Below, piece after piece: positions 10,509 to 49,938 of a stretch of DNA of 49,938 nt (within the stretch, counting starts at the first letter, position 1; the number at the start of each line of letters is the position of its first letter). The stretch comes from Perkinsus chesapeaki (taxonomy: Eukaryota; Perkinsozoa; Perkinsida; Perkinsidae), in contig JAAPAO010000185.1 of NCBI GenBank assembly GCA_013115145.1, forward strand, positions 1 to 49,938. The letters are read 5' to 3'. The notes under the pieces were generated by a model. It was not told where the DNA came from. It made no database searches and was given only the letters and a program-made list of their open reading frames with translations. The position numbers and the translations under genes are program-made.

Positions 10509-10622
10509 GTTACGGTTACGGTAACTGTATTTGCCGTAACCGTAACCGTAACCGTAACCGCAACCGTAACCGTAACCGTATTCGTATTCGTAATCGTAAT
10601 CGTAATCGTAATCGTAATCGTA
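10509..10622 (+). repeat. Hexamer array (CCGTAA)n grading into (CGTAAT)n
   Basis: The array starts as TTACGG on one strand, switches to CCGTAA, then becomes TCGTAA repeats. Degenerate TTACGG words also occur in the 200 bp upstream. Long frames on both strands here only read the repeat. Confidence 0.9.
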
Positions 10623-10873
10623 AATTTGCCCATGTATACTTCATTGTACCTTTCTGAACACTTTCTGATCCGCGAGGAACACATTTCTGCGTACCTAGAT
10701 GCCTCTCGGATCTGCGCTTGAGCTAGCGAGTGTTCGGAGTACAAATTTCGGAAGGCTTCGACATGATATCACTGATCCCTCGACTAGGGGAGCCAGAACG
10801 CAGTTTCAACTAGAGGAGCCAGAAAGGCAGTTTCGCGCTGTTGCGGGCCTAAGTGATTCCTCGTGAAAGAACG

Positions 10874-17914: not shown

Positions 17915-18514
17915 ATGCGCAACGTCATCATTGCACTTTCGCTTGCTACTGCACTCGGTACCGTTGACCAGACCCCTCCACTTCCATTCGAATGCGACCA
18001 ATACTGTGATTTCTACGAGCCCGGTTCGTACTGCAAACATTGGCAATACCCGTCCGTTTGTTTCAAGATTGATATTCCTTGCTACTGTAGTGAGCTGCCG
18101 ACCAGTCAACAGCCAGAGCAAACCAGTGAGGTGTCTACTACTGAGTCTGCTACTACTGAGGCTGCTACTACTGAGGCTGCTACTACTGAGGCTGCTGCTA
18201 CTGAGGCTGCTACTACCGAGGCTGCTACTACCGAGGCTGCTACTACCGAGGCTGCTACTACTGAGGCTGCTACTACCGAGGCTGCTACTACTGAGGCTGC
18301 TACTACCGAGGCTGCTACTACTGAGGCTGCCACTACTGAAGCTGCCACTACTGAAGCTGCCACTACTCAGGCTGATACTACCAGTACTCCAAGTAGTCCG
18401 GAGCCGCCGAGGGAGTGCGATATTGATTGCGATTCCGTGTTATCTGGCAGTTTCTGTATGACATACAAATTGCCGAACGTTTGCTGGGGCACTGATGTGG
18501 GCTGCGAATGTTGA
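17915..18514 (+). CDS. Secreted Thr/Glu/Ala-repeat protein with two six-Cys modules
   Basis: 199-aa protein. I start at ATG 17915 (MRNVIIALSLATALG, a signal peptide), which follows a pyrimidine-rich AG at 17896 that could be a splice or trans-splice acceptor. Module 1 (about residues 28-60) and module 2 (about 167-199) fit C-x3-C-x8-C-x8-C-x6-C-x-C exactly. Between them lies a run of the pentamer TTEAA, rich in threonine and likely O-glycosylated if exposed. The protein ends immediately after the last cysteine, as do both S1/P1 nucleases in this window that carry the same module. The two modules separated by a stiff acidic linker suggest a bivalent surface or matrix protein, but that is inference. 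Confidence 0.85.
   Translation: MRNVIIALSLATALGTVDQTPPLPFECDQYCDFYEPGSYCKHWQYPSVCFKIDIPCYCSELPTSQQPEQTSEVSTTESATTEAATTEAATTEAAATEAATTEAATTEAATTEAATTEAATTEAATTEAATTEAATTEAATTEAATTEAATTQADTTSTPSSPEPPRECDIDCDSVLSGSFCMTYKLPNVCWGTDVGCEC
18137..18375 (+). repeat. 15-bp coding minisatellite (TTEAA)n
   Basis: About sixteen copies of a 15-bp unit (ACTACTGAGGCTGCT and close variants) in phase with the reading frame. Silent ACT/ACC and GCT/GCC changes fall in a pattern across copies, which suggests unit-level expansion. Copy number probably varies between strains. Confidence 0.92.
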
Positions 18515-23190: not shown

Positions 23191-24137
23191 ACTTCAATTT
23201 CATGACTCCCATAATGTTTTTTTGCAATGTGGGTAGTGGCGTGAAGAACACAATCTTGGCAGGCCGGCAAAGATGATTTTGAGTTAAAGCTGGGGGGTAG
23301 TAAGTTGTTACTATTCGACGTACAATCGAGATTATATGCCGCTGACCCAAGTATTAGATGGCTACTAAGATTATACCGACCTGCGAAACTCATGCTCGCC
23401 CCGGTACGGTCGTGTGATGTACACAATTGTCTGTCTTCTTCATAGCTAACACTATTTGTCCCTGTCTCCATTAACCCTCATTAATTATACTGTTAGTATC
23501 GTTATTGTGTTCTGATTACTACACGCCAGTACCGAGGATTCTGGCAATAGTTCCATGGATGTGTTTTCTTAACTCTTTCTCCACATGTTTGCATTCTCAG
23601 GTTGATTCCATGCTTTTATCAAAACGAATAAAATGCTGTTTGCGATTCGGTGCGCACCTTCAAAGCTGGCAAGGAGTTCACTGTCGGTAAAGTATATCGT
23701 CCTGGTAGAGTAAATGACAGCTGCAGGAAGGCCGTGTCGAGGCTCATAGTAGTGAGATAAAATGAATCACCTGGGGATAGAACCTGCGGCTTCAAGAATA
23801 CAGCTGAGCTGCTCTACCGCGCCGCCAATGCAGATTTTCAAAAATATAATCGGAGGTGGTTGGCACAGATGGTTTTCAGCGGAGAGTCCCTAAGCGCTAT
23901 CCACATGTTTAAAATTTCCTGTGCGGAAGTTACATGTCACCACGGAGAAGGCCAAGGTAGGCTGAGCAGCTCCAAAGATCGCATCGATTTTTAATCTCCG
24001 TTACTCGTTCTCTCGGATAGCTTGATCGATTTTATCACAAGGCTTCCCTCGCCCACCACAACATGTACAACACAAGTCAACAATCCACTCCAAAACTGCT
24101 GAAACGTAACAATCATGTCATTTTGCAAAGTCAGTCT
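23191..24137. other. Intergenic, tRNA-like sequence
   Basis: No gene chain found. Contains a tRNA-like element at 23770-23826. Confidence 0.45.
23770..23826 (-). other. tRNA-like sequence with A- and B-box
   Basis: Minus strand reads GGCGCGGTAGAGC (A-box-like), then about 26 nt, then GCAGGTTCTATCC (B-box-like), the normal tRNA spacing. The anticodon arm does not pair well and the acceptor stem is not convincing, so I call it a tRNA-derived relic rather than a tRNA gene. Confidence 0.5.
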
Positions 24138-24266: not shown

Positions 24267-25529
24267 CTAAAGTGAGCATGAATGCAGATACAAGAGATAG
24301 ATACAAAATGGAATACTATTGAAAGACAGTATATAACGCCAACTATGGCCGCGAAAGAGATTATATGAAAATGAATAGACTTCCGAGAACTTGATTAACA
24401 ACGCTCCTACACTGGAACTCGCCTGCCAGGAAAAAGCGTGATGAACGGTGGGCAGTCCTGTAGATACATTACTGAATCGTTCACAAAACATCACAGCAAC
24501 CCAGGCTCTCGACATAATAGAGTAATCTTTATTGAGCGGAAGAATCTTAAATTTGGAACAAGTAATCTTTAAGATTTGGAATAGTATCGTTAAGAGTAGT
24601 GACACTACTGTAGTGTCACGCTACTGTAAGTATTTACACTATATACAACCGACTTACTATAGTACTGCGACACTTAGCTATACTAAGACGCAACTAGCAT
24701 CGCATCCATCCAAGAAAATTATCCCCACGACTACCTCAATATCATCATCCCAACCAACAGGCAAGTCGTACTCCTGCCGAATTCGTTCCCGAATCAGCCG
24801 CCGCCTAAGCCGAGCCGATTTCCAGCGCGCCACGAAATGCAACGCACCTTCGACTGTAGAAACTCTCTCCGGGCGTCAGACACGATACCGAGTAGATAAA
24901 AGCAAGGACAATGAGCACATTCATGGTGAAGCCAGATGGATCCTGACCAACCAAAATCATCACTCCCAGAAATGCGTCCTTCGGGGATCGAAACACGCTC
25001 CTGGGTGCGACGATACGAAATATTTATATGAAAAATGTGAATAGTAATTTATCAGTTGCTCTGGAGATTATACGCGCCCGGAGCAGAAGGAAACATCCAA
25101 CCCAGTGGTGCGCTACGACTCCCTCACCGACGATCATGCCGGAATTTATCCACCCTATTATCCTCTTCATCATCTATGTCGGTACTGCCCTAACAAAGGC
25201 TCTGAGCCCATTTCACAGTCCATCACATTTGGCAAGGGATAGATATTCCAGAAAATGCCTAAATCGAGCGAGCCTCATGTTATAGGAGAGATGCCGCCAA
25301 ATCCAGCCTTATTGAGAATGTTATATCACTGAGTAGTATTTTAAAGAATTCCTTAAAAAATGAAATTTTCCGGTAGTATCCCGACTCGTCCGCCGATCGA
25401 TAGATATCAAAATTGGCGACTCAGCGGCAACTTATATATCTGAACTCGCCAACGGTTACTCTATAGAAGCTTCTCCGCACTATATGTTTAGCCTTTAAAC
25501 TTCCTCACACAATCTCCCCAGTGAACACA
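24267..25529 (-). other. Probable exon-bearing region, unresolved
   Basis: A minus-strand ATG at 24924 opens a signal-peptide-like MNVLIVLAFIYSVSC and can splice across 24847-24805, but a second frame through the same DNA is equally open. Contains the perfect hairpin 24599-24607/ctg/24611-24619. Confidence 0.3.
24599..24619. repeat. Perfect hairpin
   Basis: 24599-24607/ctg/24611-24619 (GTGACACTA and its exact complement). Confidence 0.9.
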
Positions 25530-32500: not shown

Positions 32501-34184
32501 GAGGCTCGGATATGGGAAGATCTCTGGCGTATTCCTGCCTGTGAGTTTGAACATCTTAGTGGGTCCTTGATGAGTTAGAGCATGATTGCAATGTAGAGAT
32601 CATGCCGGTTTGAGCAACCATAAAGTTCATAGGAGATAACCGAGTGTTGATTAGCAATACTCGTTCACATCATGGTATGAGATAGAGGACATAACTCGGG
32701 AACAGCGCTCCATTTAGCCTCGATATATCATCATCCCGCACTCCATGACTCATGGACCATGAAGAGTGAGAAACCGCCAGTAGACATTTCATGAAAGGCT
32801 GTGCCACAGCGGCTGTGGAGCGCAAGAGTACCAGCATATAGCTGAGTTCGACTCATTAGTATTTGGCAAATTAGGGCGCCTAAGCGAAGGGACAGCAGGT
32901 ATGACACAATTGGTGCCACAAGCACCTGCAGGCTGCCTGCACTTACTAGATTGTTTAAGATCAGTCTGAATTGTATGCGTCTTGAAGTGCCGCATTGCGG
33001 GTGGCTCGTAATAAGCTGCAAATGGTGAGAAACATAAAATGCTCCCTAGAGGAATGTGCTTGATGTTTCTTTTTGCTCTTGGAATTCCCGTCCGCATCAG
33101 GAACTCATTGTGGTCCTGAGAAGCACTCTCAAATGTGGCCAAACGCTTCCTAGTCCAGTTCGTTATACGGTGTTAGTAAATCCTTTGAGAAAGTTTGATG
33201 AATGTAGATACGATTCGTAGCTTCCGACAACAACTGTGTGATAACGCGTATCATTTCAGCTCGTCCAGACAATACTGAGAGCTGAGGGAAAGAGCAACCA
33301 ATCAATGACAACTCTGGGATGCCTGTTGATGGTGTATCGAAGAAGTGGCGTCATTGGATGTTATTCGGGACTGCAGGCCAAATTAACACAAACTGTAAGC
33401 GCTTTAAATGCGGGCAATTTCGCACTGAAATTGCGAGAAATTTTGTTTCCCTCAATACTTAACGATTTTTTTTCTGTGTTTGGCTGATTTTTCCTGGATA
33501 TTTTAGCAAGCATTTTACTCAGTTTAACTAAAAAGCAGATCACATTGTAGTATTCCACACTTGCTTCAGCTTCATGCTAAAATTATGGAAAGTTAGGCAT
33601 CTCATTTGTTGCTTTTTCGGAAGAAAATTTCCCGGGAAATTTTCCCCGTTTTATTCGGAATTTTTTTGCATTGCAAATTCCAGGATGTATGTGATGACGA
33701 ATTGCTATCGAAGTTTCAAGACGTCTCTTTAGGGAAGTAACGGGTTTGTGAACGTTTGCTTTGTAGCGCACGTGTGTGCTTAAAAATCGAAGACATCGTC
33801 CCTCTGAAAAATTTTATGCGAAAATTTTTTACCTGAAGTGTTGTCCCTGCCGAGCTGGCCATTGAACTCCCTTCGCCCTTCAGGTTCTAAATGCGATGCT
33901 AATGTCTGTATTATACGAAAGGATTTTGAAGATAGTTCAACGCAATTCTTATACCGTGTCATCGGCTATTAAGAGGTACCGGGCAAAGCTGCCGGAATAA
34001 AAGGCGCAGGTTCAATTCCTGGCTGGGGCATTTTTCTGTAATTATCATCTGTACTGTAACGATATATTCACGTTGTATTACGAAAATCGAGTTTCTATTT
34101 CTTTGTAGAGTTTCGTTGGGCTACTTGATGATTCGGAAGCGATTATACCCCACAGGTGGGTTCATATGGGATTTAACGATGTAA
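26552..34184 (+). CDS. SLC25A17: Peroxisomal-type mitochondrial carrier family protein (PMP34-like)
   Basis: Six-helix SLC25 transporter; PMP34 members carry CoA, FAD, NAD and related nucleotides across the peroxisomal membrane. Exons: 26552-26657, 26914-27064, 27196-27238 (or to 27262), 27294-27362, 27931-28051, 28445-28657, 29295-29401, 33260-33394, 33884-33975, 34109-34184; phases agree, giving about 370-378 aa. The three repeats show YPLDQIR, then TSPLWVYSTTKR, then TYPLQLVQTILR. PLW in repeat 2 and a PLQ/PMQ-type signature in repeat 3 are typical of PMP34 rather than of general carriers. LYQGIGASVEALLVSYFVFF and VGNPVVHFVVYE also match. A long loop after helix 4 (about 50 residues) enlarges it. 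The start follows a pyrimidine-AG site by 13 nt. Intron 29402-33259 (3.9 kb) holds another gene; introns 28052-28444 and 33976-34108 hold tRNA-like segments. Confidence 0.85.
28330..28395 (+). other. B-box sequence in carrier intron 28052-28444
   Basis: An exact tRNA B-box, GGTTCGAATCC (28368-28378), in sense orientation. A weak A-box-like stretch (TTGGCTCTCGTGTC) lies about 40 nt upstream. Confidence 0.5.
28678..28755 (+). repeat. 39-bp tandem duplication
   Basis: Two adjacent copies (28678-28716 and 28717-28755) differing at a few positions, within the carrier intron 28658-29294. Confidence 0.85.
29515..29553. repeat. 18-bp perfect hairpin in carrier intron
   Basis: 29515-29532/tac/29536-29553, exact over 18 bp (CAGCAGCGATATGGACCA). 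The longest compact hairpin in the window. Confidence 0.92.
30220..31385 (+). pseudogene. Secreted-type gene nested in the carrier intron, with a frame break
   Basis: Lies on the same strand inside carrier intron 29402-33259. The start at 30220 (MMSKSFIILNVVFPFW, signal-peptide-like) follows a CTTGCAG acceptor by 19 nt. The first frame runs to 30537 and contains GTYKAVAMPD and a conserved-looking FTMEVKDGVNGQL block. From about 30495 the protein continues in a different frame (CMRFLTGGYLGGEF, then a beta-rich domain, then a long Ser/Pro/Asp-rich tail) to the stop at 31385. The frames overlap from about 30490 to 30537. Joining them needs a one-base shift or a 20-nt intron, smaller than any other here. 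It may be a pseudogene, a recent frameshift allele or a base-calling error. I do not recognise the domain; secretion is inferred. Confidence 0.6.
33623..33644. repeat. 22-bp perfect palindrome
   Basis: GAAAATTTCCCGGGAAATTTTC is self-complementary over all 22 bases apart from none unpaired; it lies in carrier intron 33395-33883. Confidence 0.9.
33976..34035 (+). other. tRNA-like segment with T-run in carrier intron
   Basis: The intron begins near the exon edge with an A-box-like GGGCAAAGCTGCCGG, then the B-box GGTTCAATTCC (34009-34019), then GGCTGGGGCA and TTTTT (34031-34035), which looks like an RNA polymerase III terminator. The acceptor stem does not close, so it is tRNA-derived rather than a tRNA gene. 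Confidence 0.6.
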
Positions 34185-40701: not shown

Positions 40702-43700
40702 ATGAGTGACACTCCAAAACTAAACCGATCGGCGATGACGTCGTTGCAATCGGATATCCATTCGATGCAAAATAATATGAAAACTGACGATTTCCATTCC
40801 TTGGCAAACTCCTACAATGCGACCCTGAGGAGTTGGGAGAAAGCCGCGGCGATGAGCTCGGCGATGAGCGGTGCTGAGGTGGTCGATGTTCAAAAGATGG
40901 TAAGGTGCGCATGCGTGCAAATGTGGTAGTGTGGTTGATGTCAGAACGCCCCGGACTTCCTGGTGAAGGCGGTAGTTGACTTGGAGGATTATATTCAGGA
41001 GAAGTTCTCGAGTAGTTGGGAAATCTTTATAGTGCATAAATGAGCGTATCTTTAGATAAGTCTAAGATGTCGAAGATCAAAGCACAAGCGTTGAACAAGC
41101 TTAGGGCACAGGTAAGATACAAAATAGGTCAGCTTGGTGACGACTGTGGCTAAATCGATCAGGTCCGGAAGGGAAATGCGCAGACTTTCTCTGAGGAGCA
41201 GCTCGAGCATTGTCGAGAGCACCCGGAAGATTACGCTGACCTGGAGCCCGAGGTTGACGAGGACTCTGACGACGACGATCAGGATGAAGTTGAGAGTGAG
41301 GAGTCCAGTAGCGAATCGGAGAGTGATAGTGACGACGAATCTTCCGAGAGCGAGTCGGATTCGGAGTCGGAGTCGGAGAGCAGCTCGAGCGAGAGCGAGG
41401 ATGAAAGCCCGAAGGTTCGCGGTGCCGGGATCGAACCCGGGTGGATCGGTTTGTGTATTAGGCCAAAGCGAAGCCGAAGCGTCGGGCAGTCGTTGATGAT
41501 GTGGATTCTGAGGGATCGCTGACTTCCTCAGATGAGGAGAGCGATAGTGACGAGGACGAGGTAATAAAACTCCAGAGGCCGGGATCGAACTTGCGTGGTT
41601 CAGTCGTCATCGGACGAATCGTCCTACAGCAGTAGCTCTTCATCATCGTCGAGCAGCTCCTCGGAGTCGGACTTCTCGACGAGTGAGAGCGAGTCTGAGA
41701 GTGACGCGGAGAGCGCATGGAGCATGTCGGCCGACGATGAGAGTGAAGATGACGAGCTGGACGAGCAGGCGAAGAGGAGAAAGAGAGCTTTGAAATGGCT
41801 CAAGGACAGCGATGAGAGTGACTCTGAAGATGAGAGGAGGCAGGCTAACGAGGTAATATGGCCTAGCGGTAGAGCGTTCGGTTTGTAACCCGTATGTCGC
41901 TGGTTCGATCCTTAGTTGTTACGTTTAGATCCGTGCTCGCCGCTTGCAAGCTCGTGGGGCCAAGGACGAGGCGGCAGCCAAGCGTCAGCAGGCCATGGAC
42001 AGCGATGCTGATGAGGAGGACACCGACGCCGAATTCAACGTCATAGACCGCGAGGAAGCGCTGGCTGAGACTTTGAAAACTCAATACGGTATCCATGATG
42101 AGATGGAGGAGGAGGATGTGCTGAGCAAGACTAAGGAGATCTTGCAGCAACGGGGTCGAAGAGGAGTTGACAGGCAACTTCAACATAAAAAGATGCTTGC
42201 TCTCCTGGAGATATCCGAGAAGAACGATTTCGATCTGAGCACTCGAGCGACCCTTCTGGGAGCTATCCTATCTCATTACGTGGACCAGCGAGCTGGCGTG
42301 TTCAACAGTCTCCCTAGGAAGGCATGGTTGGAGTGCTTTGGTTATCTTGGCAAGTTGATATCTCTCGTGGCTGCCGATGCTAACACTATCATTCTCACTG
42401 GTGGTATGGAGAAGAGTGAGGATGAGACTGTAAAGAGGCAACAGCGATCTGCGACCAACTCGGCGTTGGCCGGCTACATCGAACAGCTGGACGAAGACCT
42501 ATATAAGAGCCTTCAAAGTGCAGCAGAGTAGGCTTGGCCGGGGATCGAACCAGGGACCTTTCGATTGTTGTTAATTTTAGTTTGTCCTCCGCGCAACATT
42601 CCGCTGGTTCGTCGACTACTACTGGTGCTATCGATAATGCCGAGCAGTACACACAGCGACTGGTGGACTCCTACCGACTAGCTGCCGTGGAGTTCGTGGC
42701 ATTGTGTCAGTTCAAGAGTAATGGAGGGAGGGCATCTGTGAAGGGTTCGTACTGGATCATTTTTAAAACGGAGAAGTGGTACTTGTGAGAAATAAGGTTC
42801 ATAAAAATTTGCCAACGTACCAGGCTGGCGGCCTTGAAGCGTTTTCTTTGAAGACTTCTCTAAGGCTTCGTCACAGCGACATTTTGGCAACTAATCACTC
42901 CGCCTCCAATAGACCTAACTCGAACTAGGTTGTTGACGATGACGTTTCATTTCGGTTCCGTGCTCGTTTGTAGCTTCGCCGCGGATTAGTTCGAGGTTTT
43001 TTGTGATGTCGCGGCCGGGGTCTTTCGCATGTTGGTTGTTTCAGTTGATACCAGCGTTGAGGAAGGTGAAGCCAAGGACTCCGTGGTCTCCCGCGTCGCT
43101 TTGAAGTTGATAGATCATCTCTACTATCGTCCAGAGAACCTCAACAAGTTGGTCATTCGCAAGATTTCCGAGAACCTCAAGAACGGCGACGATCTGATGT
43201 CATGCAACCTCGCGAGCGCCTTGGTGGAGACCGCCAGTGTCGAGTGGGAGCGTCTCTCTCAGCTGGAGGAAGGCAGCTCCGTGGCTCTCGTCGGCAGTCT
43301 GGCCGCCTGCATCTACAACTTCAGCGGTCCTATGGCGACTAGCATGAAGGTCGTCGCTTTGTTACGTCAAATTTTCCACTACGCAAATAACGATCGACTG
43401 AAGGAAGCCAGGAGGCTGATAACGGTCTCGAACGTCCACGAGAGGGTGCCTCCCTCCCTTACCGGCGCGGGTGCCGATGTCAACACGCAAGTGTTATACA
43501 ACAGGGCGCTGGCAGCGATCGGAATGGCTCACTTCAGAGCTGGAAATGTTGCCCAGGCACATAAGTAATATATGGGTAATAATGTAGGGGGTGGGAATCG
43601 AACCTGTGTAGGTATCTATACGAGCTTTGCGGACAGAATCGATGCCGTGAACTTCTTGCTCAGGGATACAGTAGAGTGTCTACCATGCGCGGAGAGGTAG

Positions 43701-45003
43701 CCATTTCGTGGCGCAGTGACGGAATTTCGTGCCATTCAGGAGAAGACACCCGAGCAAGAGAAGGCTGAAAGACGTCGTCGTCTGCCCTATCATATGCATA
43801 TGAATCTCGAGCTCATCGAGACGGCCCATATGATTTGCGGTGTCCTTCTTGAAGTGACTCAGATGGCTTATCACCGTGCAACTGGTAAGGTGGTCTTGGG
43901 TTCTATCCGCGGCTGGGGTATTTTTATTGTATATTTTATACAGTGCTGGAGAATATCGTCTATACGTCGAATCGATGAGGAATTTCCTCAGGGAATGCTT
44001 GCAGGAATTCCTATTATGGTTTTGATAAGCGGTACTTCCCAACTCTATTTTTCAGGTGCCAACAGTCCCTTGGTGAATCGCGTTGTCCGTCGGTCTCTCG
44101 AGCTCATGGATCGTCAGACCTTCCTGGGCCCTCCTGAGTCAGGTCGTGACTCTGTACTTTTCGCTGGCAAGGCGGCCCTCTCCGCCGACGTTGACCGCGC
44201 TGTGGCGTTGGTGTCGTCATTGAAGATTTGGGAGCAGCTACCAGCACATGTTCTTACTTCCATTCAAGACGGCATGAGGAGGACCTGCCTTCAAGTTGCC
44301 CTGTACAGAAGTATGCTAACCCATACCTCAGTGAACTCCCTCCAGCTCTCGGAACATTATAAGGTGGATCACAGCGAAGTTAACGGTAGGAATTAATATG
44401 ACAACTTGCAGTGGTTCTAGCTTTGTGAGATCTAGGGTCCGTTGTGGAACTTTTCGTCGGGTCATTGGATTGCAAATGTATCGGTGAACTCCAATTTGAC
44501 GCTGGTCGGCATTGGTCTTTTTTTGTTAGCTATGATTCGTCAACTGATCTTAAGAGGAGAGTATCCAGCTCAGTTCGTGCCGGAGGGTGAGATCGGCGAT
44601 GCCACCGAAGACAAGATGCTTTTCACCAAGTAAGAGACTTAGCCTTTCTGGAGGATTCCCTAAATCTTGTCTTTCCAGCTTCACCCGGGCAACTCGATTC
44701 CAGCAGTTGTCTCGTCAGCTTGTGGACCGCTCAATCATGACGACGGATAGCAACGACAAGCTGGTGATGGATCCAACGACTGGTCGTTACGACTACCGAG
44801 GAAGCGGCCTTCCGAGTGATCAACCCAAACCGAAGATTGCTCGAGCGCCGATGACAAGCGAGGAGGCGGCCAGGAGAGGATGGGGCGCTGCACGGCGGCA
44901 AGCGAAGGGAACGGTGATCCCGAACGCTTCGGCTGTGGGCGGTCTGAAGCCCGCTGTTGGTGGATTGAGGACAGGCAAGTACGTACCGCCAGGACGACGT
45001 TAA
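40702..45003 (+). CDS. EIF3C: Eukaryotic translation initiation factor 3 subunit C, 14 exons
   Basis: Core PCI-domain subunit of eIF3, which docks on the 40S ribosome and bridges eIF1/eIF5. Exons: 40702-40899, 40945-41011, 41056-41111, 41163-41414, 41462-41560, 41604-41852, 41929-42527, 42581-42744, 43045-43564, 43612-43696, 43740-43884, 44056-44385, 44530-44629, 44679-45003. All 13 introns are GT-AG with agreeing phases; 1062 aa against about 910 in animals. Landmarks: an N-terminal VVDLEDYIQEKF block, an extended Ser/Asp/Glu-rich region (exons 4-6, longer than usual), QRGRRGVDRQLQHKKMLALL, VNTQVLYNRALAAIGMAHFR, the diagnostic QEKAERRRRLPYHMHMNLEL, and a PCI winged-helix region (NSLQLSEHYKVDHSEVN to MIRQLILRGEYPAQF). 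Introns 4, 5, 6, 7, 9 and 11 carry tRNA-like T-arm sequences. Confidence 0.95.
41415..41461 (-). other. eIF3c intron 4: antisense tRNA T-arm
   Basis: The 47-nt intron contains, read on the minus strand, CCGGGTTCGATCCCGG, a perfect T-arm stem-loop (GTTCGATCC core), starting close to the 5' splice site. Confidence 0.7.
41561..41603 (-). other. eIF3c intron 5: antisense tRNA T-arm
   Basis: The 43-nt intron reads AAGTTCGATCCCGGCC on the minus strand. The GGCCGGGATCGAAC block is shared with introns 4 and 7. Confidence 0.7.
41853..41928 (+). other. eIF3c intron 6: near-complete tRNA-like sequence
   Basis: The 76-nt intron has tRNA length and order: TAGCGGTAGAGCG (A-box-like), a TTTGTAA loop as in Thr(UGU) anticodon loops, then GGTTCGATCC (B-box). 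The first seven intron bases can pair with TTGTTAC near its 3' end like an acceptor stem. D- and T-stems are imperfect, so it is probably not a functional tRNA. Confidence 0.65.
42528..42580 (-). other. eIF3c intron 7: antisense tRNA T-arm
   Basis: The 53-nt intron reads CCTGGTTCGATCCCCGGCC on the minus strand, a near-perfect T-arm. Confidence 0.7.
43565..43611 (-). other. eIF3c intron 9: antisense tRNA T-arm
   Basis: The 47-nt intron reads CAGGTTCGATTCCCACC on the minus strand, an exact B-box. The 3' splice site (GTGTAG) lies directly beside the T-arm. Confidence 0.7.
43885..44055 (+). other. eIF3c intron 11: sense tRNA 3' segment with T-run
   Basis: Within the first 45 nt: GGGTTCTATCC (43898-43908), GGCTGGGGTA (43911-43920) and TTTTT. 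Same layout as the carrier intron element at 33976-34035. Confidence 0.65.
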
Positions 45004-49772: not shown

Positions 49773-49938
49773 ATTGGTAATGGTACGACGGTAATTGGTG
49801 ATGGTACGATGGTAATTGGTAATGGTACGATGGTAATTGGTACTGGTACGATGGTAATTGGTAATGGTACGATGGTAATTGGTAATGGTACGATGGTAAT
49901 TGGTAATGGTACGATGGTAATTGGTAATGGTACGATGG
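49773..49938 (+). repeat. 21-bp tandem repeat running off the window
   Basis: About eight copies of a unit reading ATTGGTAATGGTACGATGGTA with single-base variants (GGTGAT, GGTACT, GACGG) in the first copies. The last copies are identical. The array continues beyond the end. Confidence 0.95.

What the first reader, a model, noticed from the sequence alone, without database searches (positions are those of the whole stretch)
41415..44055. tRNA T-arm sequences sit inside at least six of thirteen eIF3c introns
Introns 4, 5, 6, 7, 9 and 11 each contain a tRNA B-box/T-arm core (GTTCRANNC or one mismatch), usually within 30 nt of the 5' splice site. Four are antisense and two are sense. Introns 1-3 and 10 do not show it. 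All splice phases are confirmed by the conserved protein. Introns of only 43-76 nt that consist largely of tRNA-like sequence suggest that a tRNA-derived element (SINE-like or introner-like) seeded or repeatedly entered these introns. I know of no description of tRNA-derived introners in this lineage, but I cannot search.
Basis: partly seen in the sequence, partly recalled or inferred. Interest (0 to 1): 0.93.

Follow-up and report, generated by a model that had tools for sequence, protein, structure and literature searches.

The report
tRNA-end-like elements forming tiny introns
In a Perkinsus (shellfish-parasite) genome, a short stretch resembling the tail end of transfer-RNA genes is scattered in hundreds to thousands of copies and makes up the body of several very short introns, but whether it is a mobile intron-maker or a preserved protein-binding site could not be settled.

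Summary
The eIF3c gene has 13 introns; six (4, 5, 6, 7, 9, 11) carry a tRNA B-box/T-loop core, four antisense and two sense. Intron 6 is a decayed tRNA-Thr(UGU)-like sequence (39/51 identical, anticodon kept). It is not local: a 30-nt motif (C48, B-box, GGCA73-TTTT) occurs 847 times genome-wide against 0 for the reversed pattern and is depleted in exons. A dinucleotide-decoy test puts an excess of about 11-12 of 132 sampled copies in 38-90-nt introns. tRNA ancestry is shown only for a minority: A-box upstream in 9 of 132; tRNA-like 5' half in 8 of 132, intron 6 included. Against a young tRNA retroposon: T-stem unpaired, spacer variable, one clean target-site duplication among 77 sites, no sibling found for the two copies searched. 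Conservation peaks on the B-box. Best reading: an old, diverged, tRNA-derived, SINE-like population, part of which became ~45-nt introns. Close rival: selected TFIIIC/B-box sites housed in introns. Intron gain could not be tested without sister-species DNA.

The parts
40702..45003 (+). eIF3c gene, 14 exons, 13 introns (1053 aa)
   Evidence: spliced model; 85% to P. olseni P0002 and 84% to P. marinus P0001; Pfam eIF-3c_N on three of four exon pieces
41415..41461 (+). intron 4, 47 nt, antisense element (B-box complement 41427-41437), 5' splice site 1 nt from the A73 position
41561..41603 (+). intron 5, 43 nt, antisense element (B-box complement 41581-41591, 1 mismatch); intron begins with the reverse complement of GTTTTATTAC
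41853..41928 (+). intron 6, 76 nt, sense decayed tRNA-Thr(UGU)-like sequence; Rfam tRNA match 41853-41922 (21.4 bits, below gathering 29) starts at intron base 1
42528..42580 (+). intron 7, 53 nt, antisense element (B-box complement 42541-42551)
43565..43611 (+). intron 9, 47 nt, antisense element (B-box complement 43594-43604)
   Evidence: junctions reset and confirmed by P. marinus and P. olseni proteins
43885..44055 (+). intron 11, 171 nt, sense element with a mutated B-box (GGTTCTATCCG) near its 5' end, followed by GGGGTATTTTT
23731..23830 (-). further tRNA-like element with D-arm-like part (best match tRNA-Lys(CUU)), possibly an antisense intron; not confirmed by protein
34000..34040 (+). 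further element (matrix score 29.2), context not resolved
24970..25010 (-). further element (matrix score 18.2), context not resolved

Best explanation
The introns carry members of an old, dispersed population of short tRNA-derived, SINE-like elements. Each is essentially the 3' part of a tRNA-like gene: variable-loop AGG-C, B-box (positions 52-62), about 10 nt of former acceptor strand ending GGCA73, then an oligo-T run like a Pol III terminator; a minority also keep a 5' half with an A-box. Copies arose (inferred) by reverse transcription of Pol III transcripts from their 3' end, usually 5'-truncated, and settled mostly in non-coding DNA. Copies that landed in coding exons persisted only where GT and AG at or near the element's ends let the spliceosome remove them, giving introns of about 45 nt in either orientation. 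Shown: the element, its copy number, its depletion in exons, tRNA homology of intron 6 and of a minority, and introns of 43-53 nt made mostly of it. Inferred: retroposition, intron creation, and the reason why the B-box is kept.
For: 30-nt motif: 847 matches with <=3 mismatches vs 0 reversed control. GGTTCGANNCCC 957 vs 63. About 3,200 copies extrapolated from 18 in 200 kb. Intron 6: 39/51 ungapped to tRNA-Thr(UGU), anticodon kept. A-box at tRNA spacing in 9 of 132 vs 0 of 132 in each of three controls. tRNA-like 5' half: 8 of 132 sequences, intron 6 among them, vs 0.8 expected, to Val, Thr, Arg and Gln tRNAs. A73 plus T-run at the tRNA distance. Exon depletion: 3 of 77 sites in predicted exons vs 422 of 1500 random positions. 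GT-AG introns of 38-90 nt around the element: 16 of 132 vs decoy mean 4.6, maximum 9 over 35 decoy pairs. Short element introns are no longer than short element-free ones (43-53 vs 43-51 nt in this gene), which argues against insertion into ready-made introns.
Against: T-stem pairs 49-65, 50-64 and 51-63 are no better than permuted; no 5' acceptor partner (5 vs 4.8); acceptor 7-mers match the tRNA library no better than permuted (15 vs 11.5 with <=1 mismatch), though that library holds only 20 isoacceptors. One clean target-site duplication among 77 (L039, 12 nt). No extended sibling of intron 6 or L084. Positions 53-58 hold only 3 of 80 single mismatches while the spacer varies widely, which looks like constraint on a binding site. 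AG or AC directly after the T-run is at background (40 of 110 vs 0.364), so splice sites are not built into most copies. With a crude local model only 8 of 77 sites fall in introns vs 107 of 1500 random positions, and sense introns do not exceed a random-position control. Outside eIF3c only 3 of 172 predicted introns of 36-150 nt carry it, one of them because of a true tRNA-Pro gene, so it is a minor intron source.
Confidence: 0.45

Rival explanations
1. Selected B-box sites. The motif is a DNA binding site for TFIIIC (like extra-TFIIIC sites) or for a similar factor, kept by selection at many non-coding places; short introns are simply non-coding slots that can hold it, so orientation does not matter.
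For: The best-kept unit is the B-box 52-62, not the T-stem hairpin 49-65. Near-identical pairs are not in clear excess (2, 17, 139 at distance <=0, 1, 2 vs 0.9, 16.4, 113.6). Both orientations occur in introns (8 and 8). Matrix hits lie in and outside predicted introns.
Against: C48, GGCA73 and the oligo-T run are also kept at tRNA spacing, more than a B-box site needs. Intron 6 and 7-9 of 132 sampled copies have tRNA-like 5' halves or A-boxes. Some columns are linked (59-60-64, 49-51) and spacers are less diverse than independence predicts (58 distinct vs 70), a hint of shared descent. The 100 sequences examined are the best-matching 12% of 847, too thin to exclude sibling copies. No binding data.
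Confidence: 0.3
2. tRNA fragments of several isoacceptors were captured during DNA repair and are decaying neutrally; no element, no function.
For: Different isoacceptors among recognisable copies; no general target-site duplication.
Against: Neutral decay should not leave C48, B-box and A73-TTTT largely intact while erasing T-stem pairing and the acceptor. A57, present in 12 of the 32 tRNA variants listed, is almost absent (1 of 100; the search pattern asked for G57, so this is biased).
Confidence: 0.12
3. The elements inserted into pre-existing introns that later shrank.
For: Non-coding DNA is where such elements are tolerated; intron 11 (171 nt) and predicted longer introns carry them too.
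Against: In 43-53-nt introns the ~34-nt element leaves about 10-20 nt, so almost all of the old intron would have had to be lost each time, to the same size as ordinary introns.
Confidence: 0.1
4. Chance or base composition.
For: The short core GTTCRANNC is only 2-fold over chance in the window.
Against: 847 vs 0, 957 vs 63, 34 vs 1.3.
Confidence: 0.01

Closest known systems
Introners / introner-like elements (PMC9860276, term search only; Amoebophrya, PMC7789003, passages and section 10)
   Same: Repeated sequence forming the body of introns across a genome; Amoebophrya is a related alveolate
   Different: Here no terminal inverted repeats noticed and one direct repeat in 77 sites; introns use GT-AG; the element bears a B-box; copies share only ~30 nt; gain not demonstrated. 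In PMC9860276 the words tRNA, SINE and Perkins- do not occur in the main text; supplements not seen
tRNA-derived SINEs and tRNA retropseudogenes (features recalled, from no call)
   Same: B-box, in a minority A-box, oligo-T end, either orientation, dispersed
   Different: No shared body, no general target-site duplications, no sibling found for the two copies tested; much shorter than usual SINEs
Extra-TFIIIC (ETC) sites (recalled; one search was seen as a listing only)
   Same: Isolated B-box as the most conserved unit
   Different: A73-TTTT and C48 context kept as well; no binding evidence
Dada transposons of P. marinus, inserted in tRNA genes (PMC3706591, passages)
   Same: Perkinsus, tRNA genes as targets, large tRNA gene number
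   Different: A several-kb DNA transposon inside tRNA genes, not a 30-nt tRNA-end motif in introns

Membership tests
tRNA gene | tRNA fold scoring above the Rfam gathering score, or an ARAGORN call | tested here: not met
   Window: ARAGORN 0, Rfam gathering 0; intron 6 21.4 of 29 bits; 20 chosen loci: no RF00005 at E<=5, two weak tmRNA hits on the T-loop only. The 132 sites are by construction those without an ARAGORN call
tRNA gene | paired T-stem and acceptor stem | tested here: not met
   77 sites; 100 motif matches
Introner | repeated sequence located in spliceosomal introns | tested here: met
   Six of 13 eIF3c introns; 16 of 132 sampled copies vs decoy mean 4.6. Met for a minority of copies; no RNA-seq
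Introner | copies similar over the intron length | tested here: not met
   Only ~30 nt shared; no sibling of intron 6 or L084 (2 elements tested)
Introner | lineage-specific intron gain | not testable with these tools
   No DNA of other Perkinsus species was reachable; proteins only
tRNA-derived SINE | internal Pol III A and B boxes | tested here: inconclusive
   B-box in all by the search; A-box in 9 of 132
tRNA-derived SINE | target-site duplications | tested here: not met
   >=9 nt: 3 of 77 vs 0.57 permuted; one convincing (L039, 12 nt)
tRNA-derived SINE | common body shared by copies | tested here: not met
   upstream of position 42 and at 66-69 little is shared
ETC / TFIIIC site | B-box more conserved than its surroundings | tested here: met
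   positions 53-58 hold 3 of 80 single mismatches, the other 17 of the 23 constrained positions 77
ETC / TFIIIC site | TFIIIC occupancy | not testable with these tools
   no binding data

The most novel reading that the evidence does not exclude
Perkinsus carries tRNA-derived introners: tiny Pol III-promoter-bearing retroposons (B-box plus oligo-T end) that, on landing in exons, become ready-made ~45-nt spliceosomal introns in either orientation, a source of introns different from the DNA-transposon-like introners known.
Probability: 0.33. Interest if true: 0.85.

Novelty: new variant of a known kind. Interest (0 to 1): 0.62.

Why it matters
Many described introners have marks of DNA transposons (PMC9860276 passage: 72 of 177 families with inverted repeats, 49 of 130 with target-site duplications). 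A tRNA/Pol III-derived source of spliceosomal introns would add a retroposon route to intron birth and would be directly testable in published Perkinsus genomes. If instead the motif is a selected B-box site, it would be a genome-wide TFIIIC-like map written into minimal introns. Ten literature searches (open-licence PMC only, most results seen as listings) showed no description of either in this lineage.

Tried and rejected
Rejected on test: (1) A peak of strong antisense donors 5-7 nt from A73 (23 vs about 3) looked decisive. It is largely an artefact of the A-run that scores as GTAAAA: genome-wide, G or C after YATTTTA is 40 of 110, equal to background 0.364. I replaced it by the dinucleotide-decoy test. 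(2) Terminal-inverted-repeat or MITE reading: of 37 neighbouring pairs under 2 kb, 9 are -+, 12 +- and 16 same-strand, no excess. (3) Nucleosome-like spacing of close pairs (154-196 nt, five pairs): too few. (4) Spliced-leader relic in intron 10: GTAGCCATTT occurs 1 time vs 0.48 expected. (5) Young retrocopies of known tRNAs. (6) The first gene-finder run was degenerate and was replaced. (7) Other intron tests with mixed results: at score >=8, antisense 12 of 132 vs 43 of 1320 random, 4 of 422 shifted and 4 of 132 flipped positions; sense 6 of 132 vs 47 of 1320, 3 of 422 and 2 of 132. (8) Do most short introns descend from the element? Scores of 123 introns of 40-90 nt are shifted up over shuffles (p 0.0016) but not in the 48 with the best splice sites (p 0.37); not supported. 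(9) A pattern forcing GGTAAG plus a fixed spacing found 0.

Limits: the gene finder is self-trained on 250 kb and crude; in it intronic hits are 10 antisense to 2 sense, unlike 8:8 in the decoy test. Of 957 core sites, 149 distinct ones (window, 200-kb sample and stretches picked from contig-ordered lists) were examined; dropped were 17 ARAGORN tRNAs, duplicates and sites too near a locus end. The exon tiling test (0 of 1293 60-mers) sees only about two fifths of placements; 5 of 34 matrix hits do lie in predicted exons, which hold 36% of bases, at least one of these (43903) being intron 11. In one search only the 100 listed of 847 matches were used (20 with 0 and 80 with 1 mismatch). In one search the 132 sequences include two from the window and lose a few sites that shared a name. 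Searches use a search that skips very common words.
Full report
What was checked. The window is contig C96 of a 35.4-Mb assembly of 884 contigs. The gene is eIF3c of a Perkinsus species: 85% identical to P. olseni over 923 positions, 84% to P. marinus over 816. I rebuilt the gene as 14 exons, 40702-45003, with no internal stop; introns 1-4 and 6-11 sit at points where the P. olseni protein runs on without a gap. My first model missed two 5' introns and misplaced edges of introns 8, 9 and 10. Introns 9 and 10 were reset and borne out by both homologues; intron 8 and the two 5' introns were corrected from P. olseni.

More than chance. In the window the short core is only two-fold enriched. Genome-wide the signal is large: GGTTCGANNCCC 957 vs 63 for the reversed pattern, GGTTCGATCCCC 267 vs 4, GGTTCGAATCCC 242 vs 2, and a 30-nt motif with up to three mismatches 847 vs 0; these counts include true tRNA genes. 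In a 200-kb sample GGTTCGANNCC was 16 vs 0.85. After removal of tRNAs and double hits, 18 matrix hits remain in those 200 kb, about 3,200 per genome.

What the element is. 149 sites were collected from fetched stretches; 17 are tRNA genes by ARAGORN and 132 are not. An earlier subset of 77 gave the profile: A44 49%, G46 55%, C48 84%, B-box (fixed by the search), G65 57%, spacer 66-69 with no base above 36%, G70 52%, G71 55%, C72 69%, A73 66%, T74-T77 65-82%; upstream of 42 little is shared. In the 100 listed of 847 motif matches, G53, T55, C56, A58, C61 and G70 never vary, G57 varies once, and positions 53-58 hold 3 of 80 single mismatches. So the B-box is kept best. The T-stem is not: pairs 49-65, 50-64 and 51-63 equal permuted values; there is no 5' acceptor partner, and acceptor strands match the 20 isoacceptors I could read no better than permuted ones.

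tRNA ancestry. Intron 6 is the clearest case: Rfam tRNA at 21.4 bits, below the gathering score, starting at the first intron base, and 39 of 51 nt identical, ungapped, to tRNA-Thr(UGU) with its anticodon. Among sampled sites, 9 of 132 have an A-box at tRNA distance vs 0 in each of three controls; 8 of 132 sequences, intron 6 among them, have 5' halves like Val, Thr, Arg or Gln tRNAs vs 0.8 expected. Anticodon-stem pairing is in slight excess only (6 vs 2.5 with all five pairs). Rfam found no tRNA in 20 chosen loci. So ancestry is shown for a minority and inferred for the rest.

Introns. Sites are depleted in exons: 3 of 77 vs 422 of 1500 random positions, and 5 of 34 matrix hits in predicted exons that hold 36% of bases. 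In 132 sampled copies, short GT-AG introns with coding flanks were found for 16, against a mean of 4.6 and a maximum of 9 over 35 decoy dinucleotide pairs, 8 in each orientation: an excess of about 11-12, roughly 9%. Other tests are weaker: 8 of 77 sites in introns vs 107 of 1500, and a random-position control that the antisense class exceeds about threefold and the sense class does not. Many copies could not be placed with 400-600 nt of context. Outside eIF3c, 3 of 172 predicted introns of 36-150 nt carry the motif vs 0.1 in shuffles, one of them because it spans a true tRNA-Pro gene. eIF3c, with 6 of 13, is an outlier. In its 43-53-nt introns the element leaves about 10-20 nt, and these introns are no longer than its short element-free ones (43-51 nt), which speaks against insertion into ready-made introns.

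Mobility. Only one site has a convincing direct repeat (L039, ATTTTTTGAATT on both sides of a 58-nt insert). Intron 6 and a perfect-motif copy (L084) have no extended relative found in the genome. Near-identical motif pairs are at the expected number for distance <=1 and 2.4 sd above for <=2; spacers are less diverse than independence predicts, 58 vs 70; some columns are linked (59-60-64, 49-51). These are hints of shared descent, not proof.

A correction made on the way. An apparent peak of splice donors 5-7 nt outside the tRNA-like end is mostly explained by the A-run itself: after YATTTTA the next base is G or C in 40 of 110 genome-wide matches, the same as background 0.364. I do not use it as evidence.

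Mechanism. I favour an old population of short Pol III-type tRNA-derived retroposons, 5'-truncated, of which some became introns; the B-box would be kept because only copies with it could be copied again. The close rival is a selected B-box site, for which the conservation gradient speaks directly. The two are separated by empty orthologous sites, which need DNA of sister species that I could not reach.

Literature. PMC9860276 was searched by terms: no tRNA, SINE or Perkins- in its main text. PMC7789003 was seen in passages and section 10: more than 60% of Amoebophrya introns are non-canonical, and its introners are a subset with inverted and direct repeats. PMC3706591 was seen in passages: P. 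marinus has more than 500 gene copies in five tRNA types and Dada transposons in tRNA genes. PMC11782384 was seen in passages. Others were seen as listings only.

Noticed in passing
window 23731-23830 (-): Second tRNA-like sequence with a D-arm-like part, best match tRNA-Lys(CUU); GT and AG near its ends would make an antisense full-length tRNA-like intron.
   Followed up: partly
L039, around the site: 58-nt tRNA-3'-like insert flanked by a perfect 12-nt direct repeat that includes the A73-T-run, the best single case for an insertion event.
   Followed up: partly
L122 (C48:30140-30740): An antisense and a sense element about 130 nt apart; an intron using the outer end of each looks possible.
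   Followed up: no
contig C48, 18-36 kb: Eight core sites in 18 kb, a cluster like that in eIF3c.
   Followed up: partly
window 40702-41055: The P. olseni protein and this window agree that the eIF3c open frame starts upstream of the ATG at 41040, adding two introns of 45 and 44 nt.
   Followed up: yes
window 10534-10623; 18135-18381; 49773-49938: Tandem repeats: CCGTAA x15, a 15-nt repeat in a Ser-rich frame, and a 21-nt repeat at the window's end.
   Followed up: no
contigs C440 and C328: Several tRNA genes per contig within a few kb; those read by ARAGORN are mostly tRNA-Arg(UCU).
   Followed up: no
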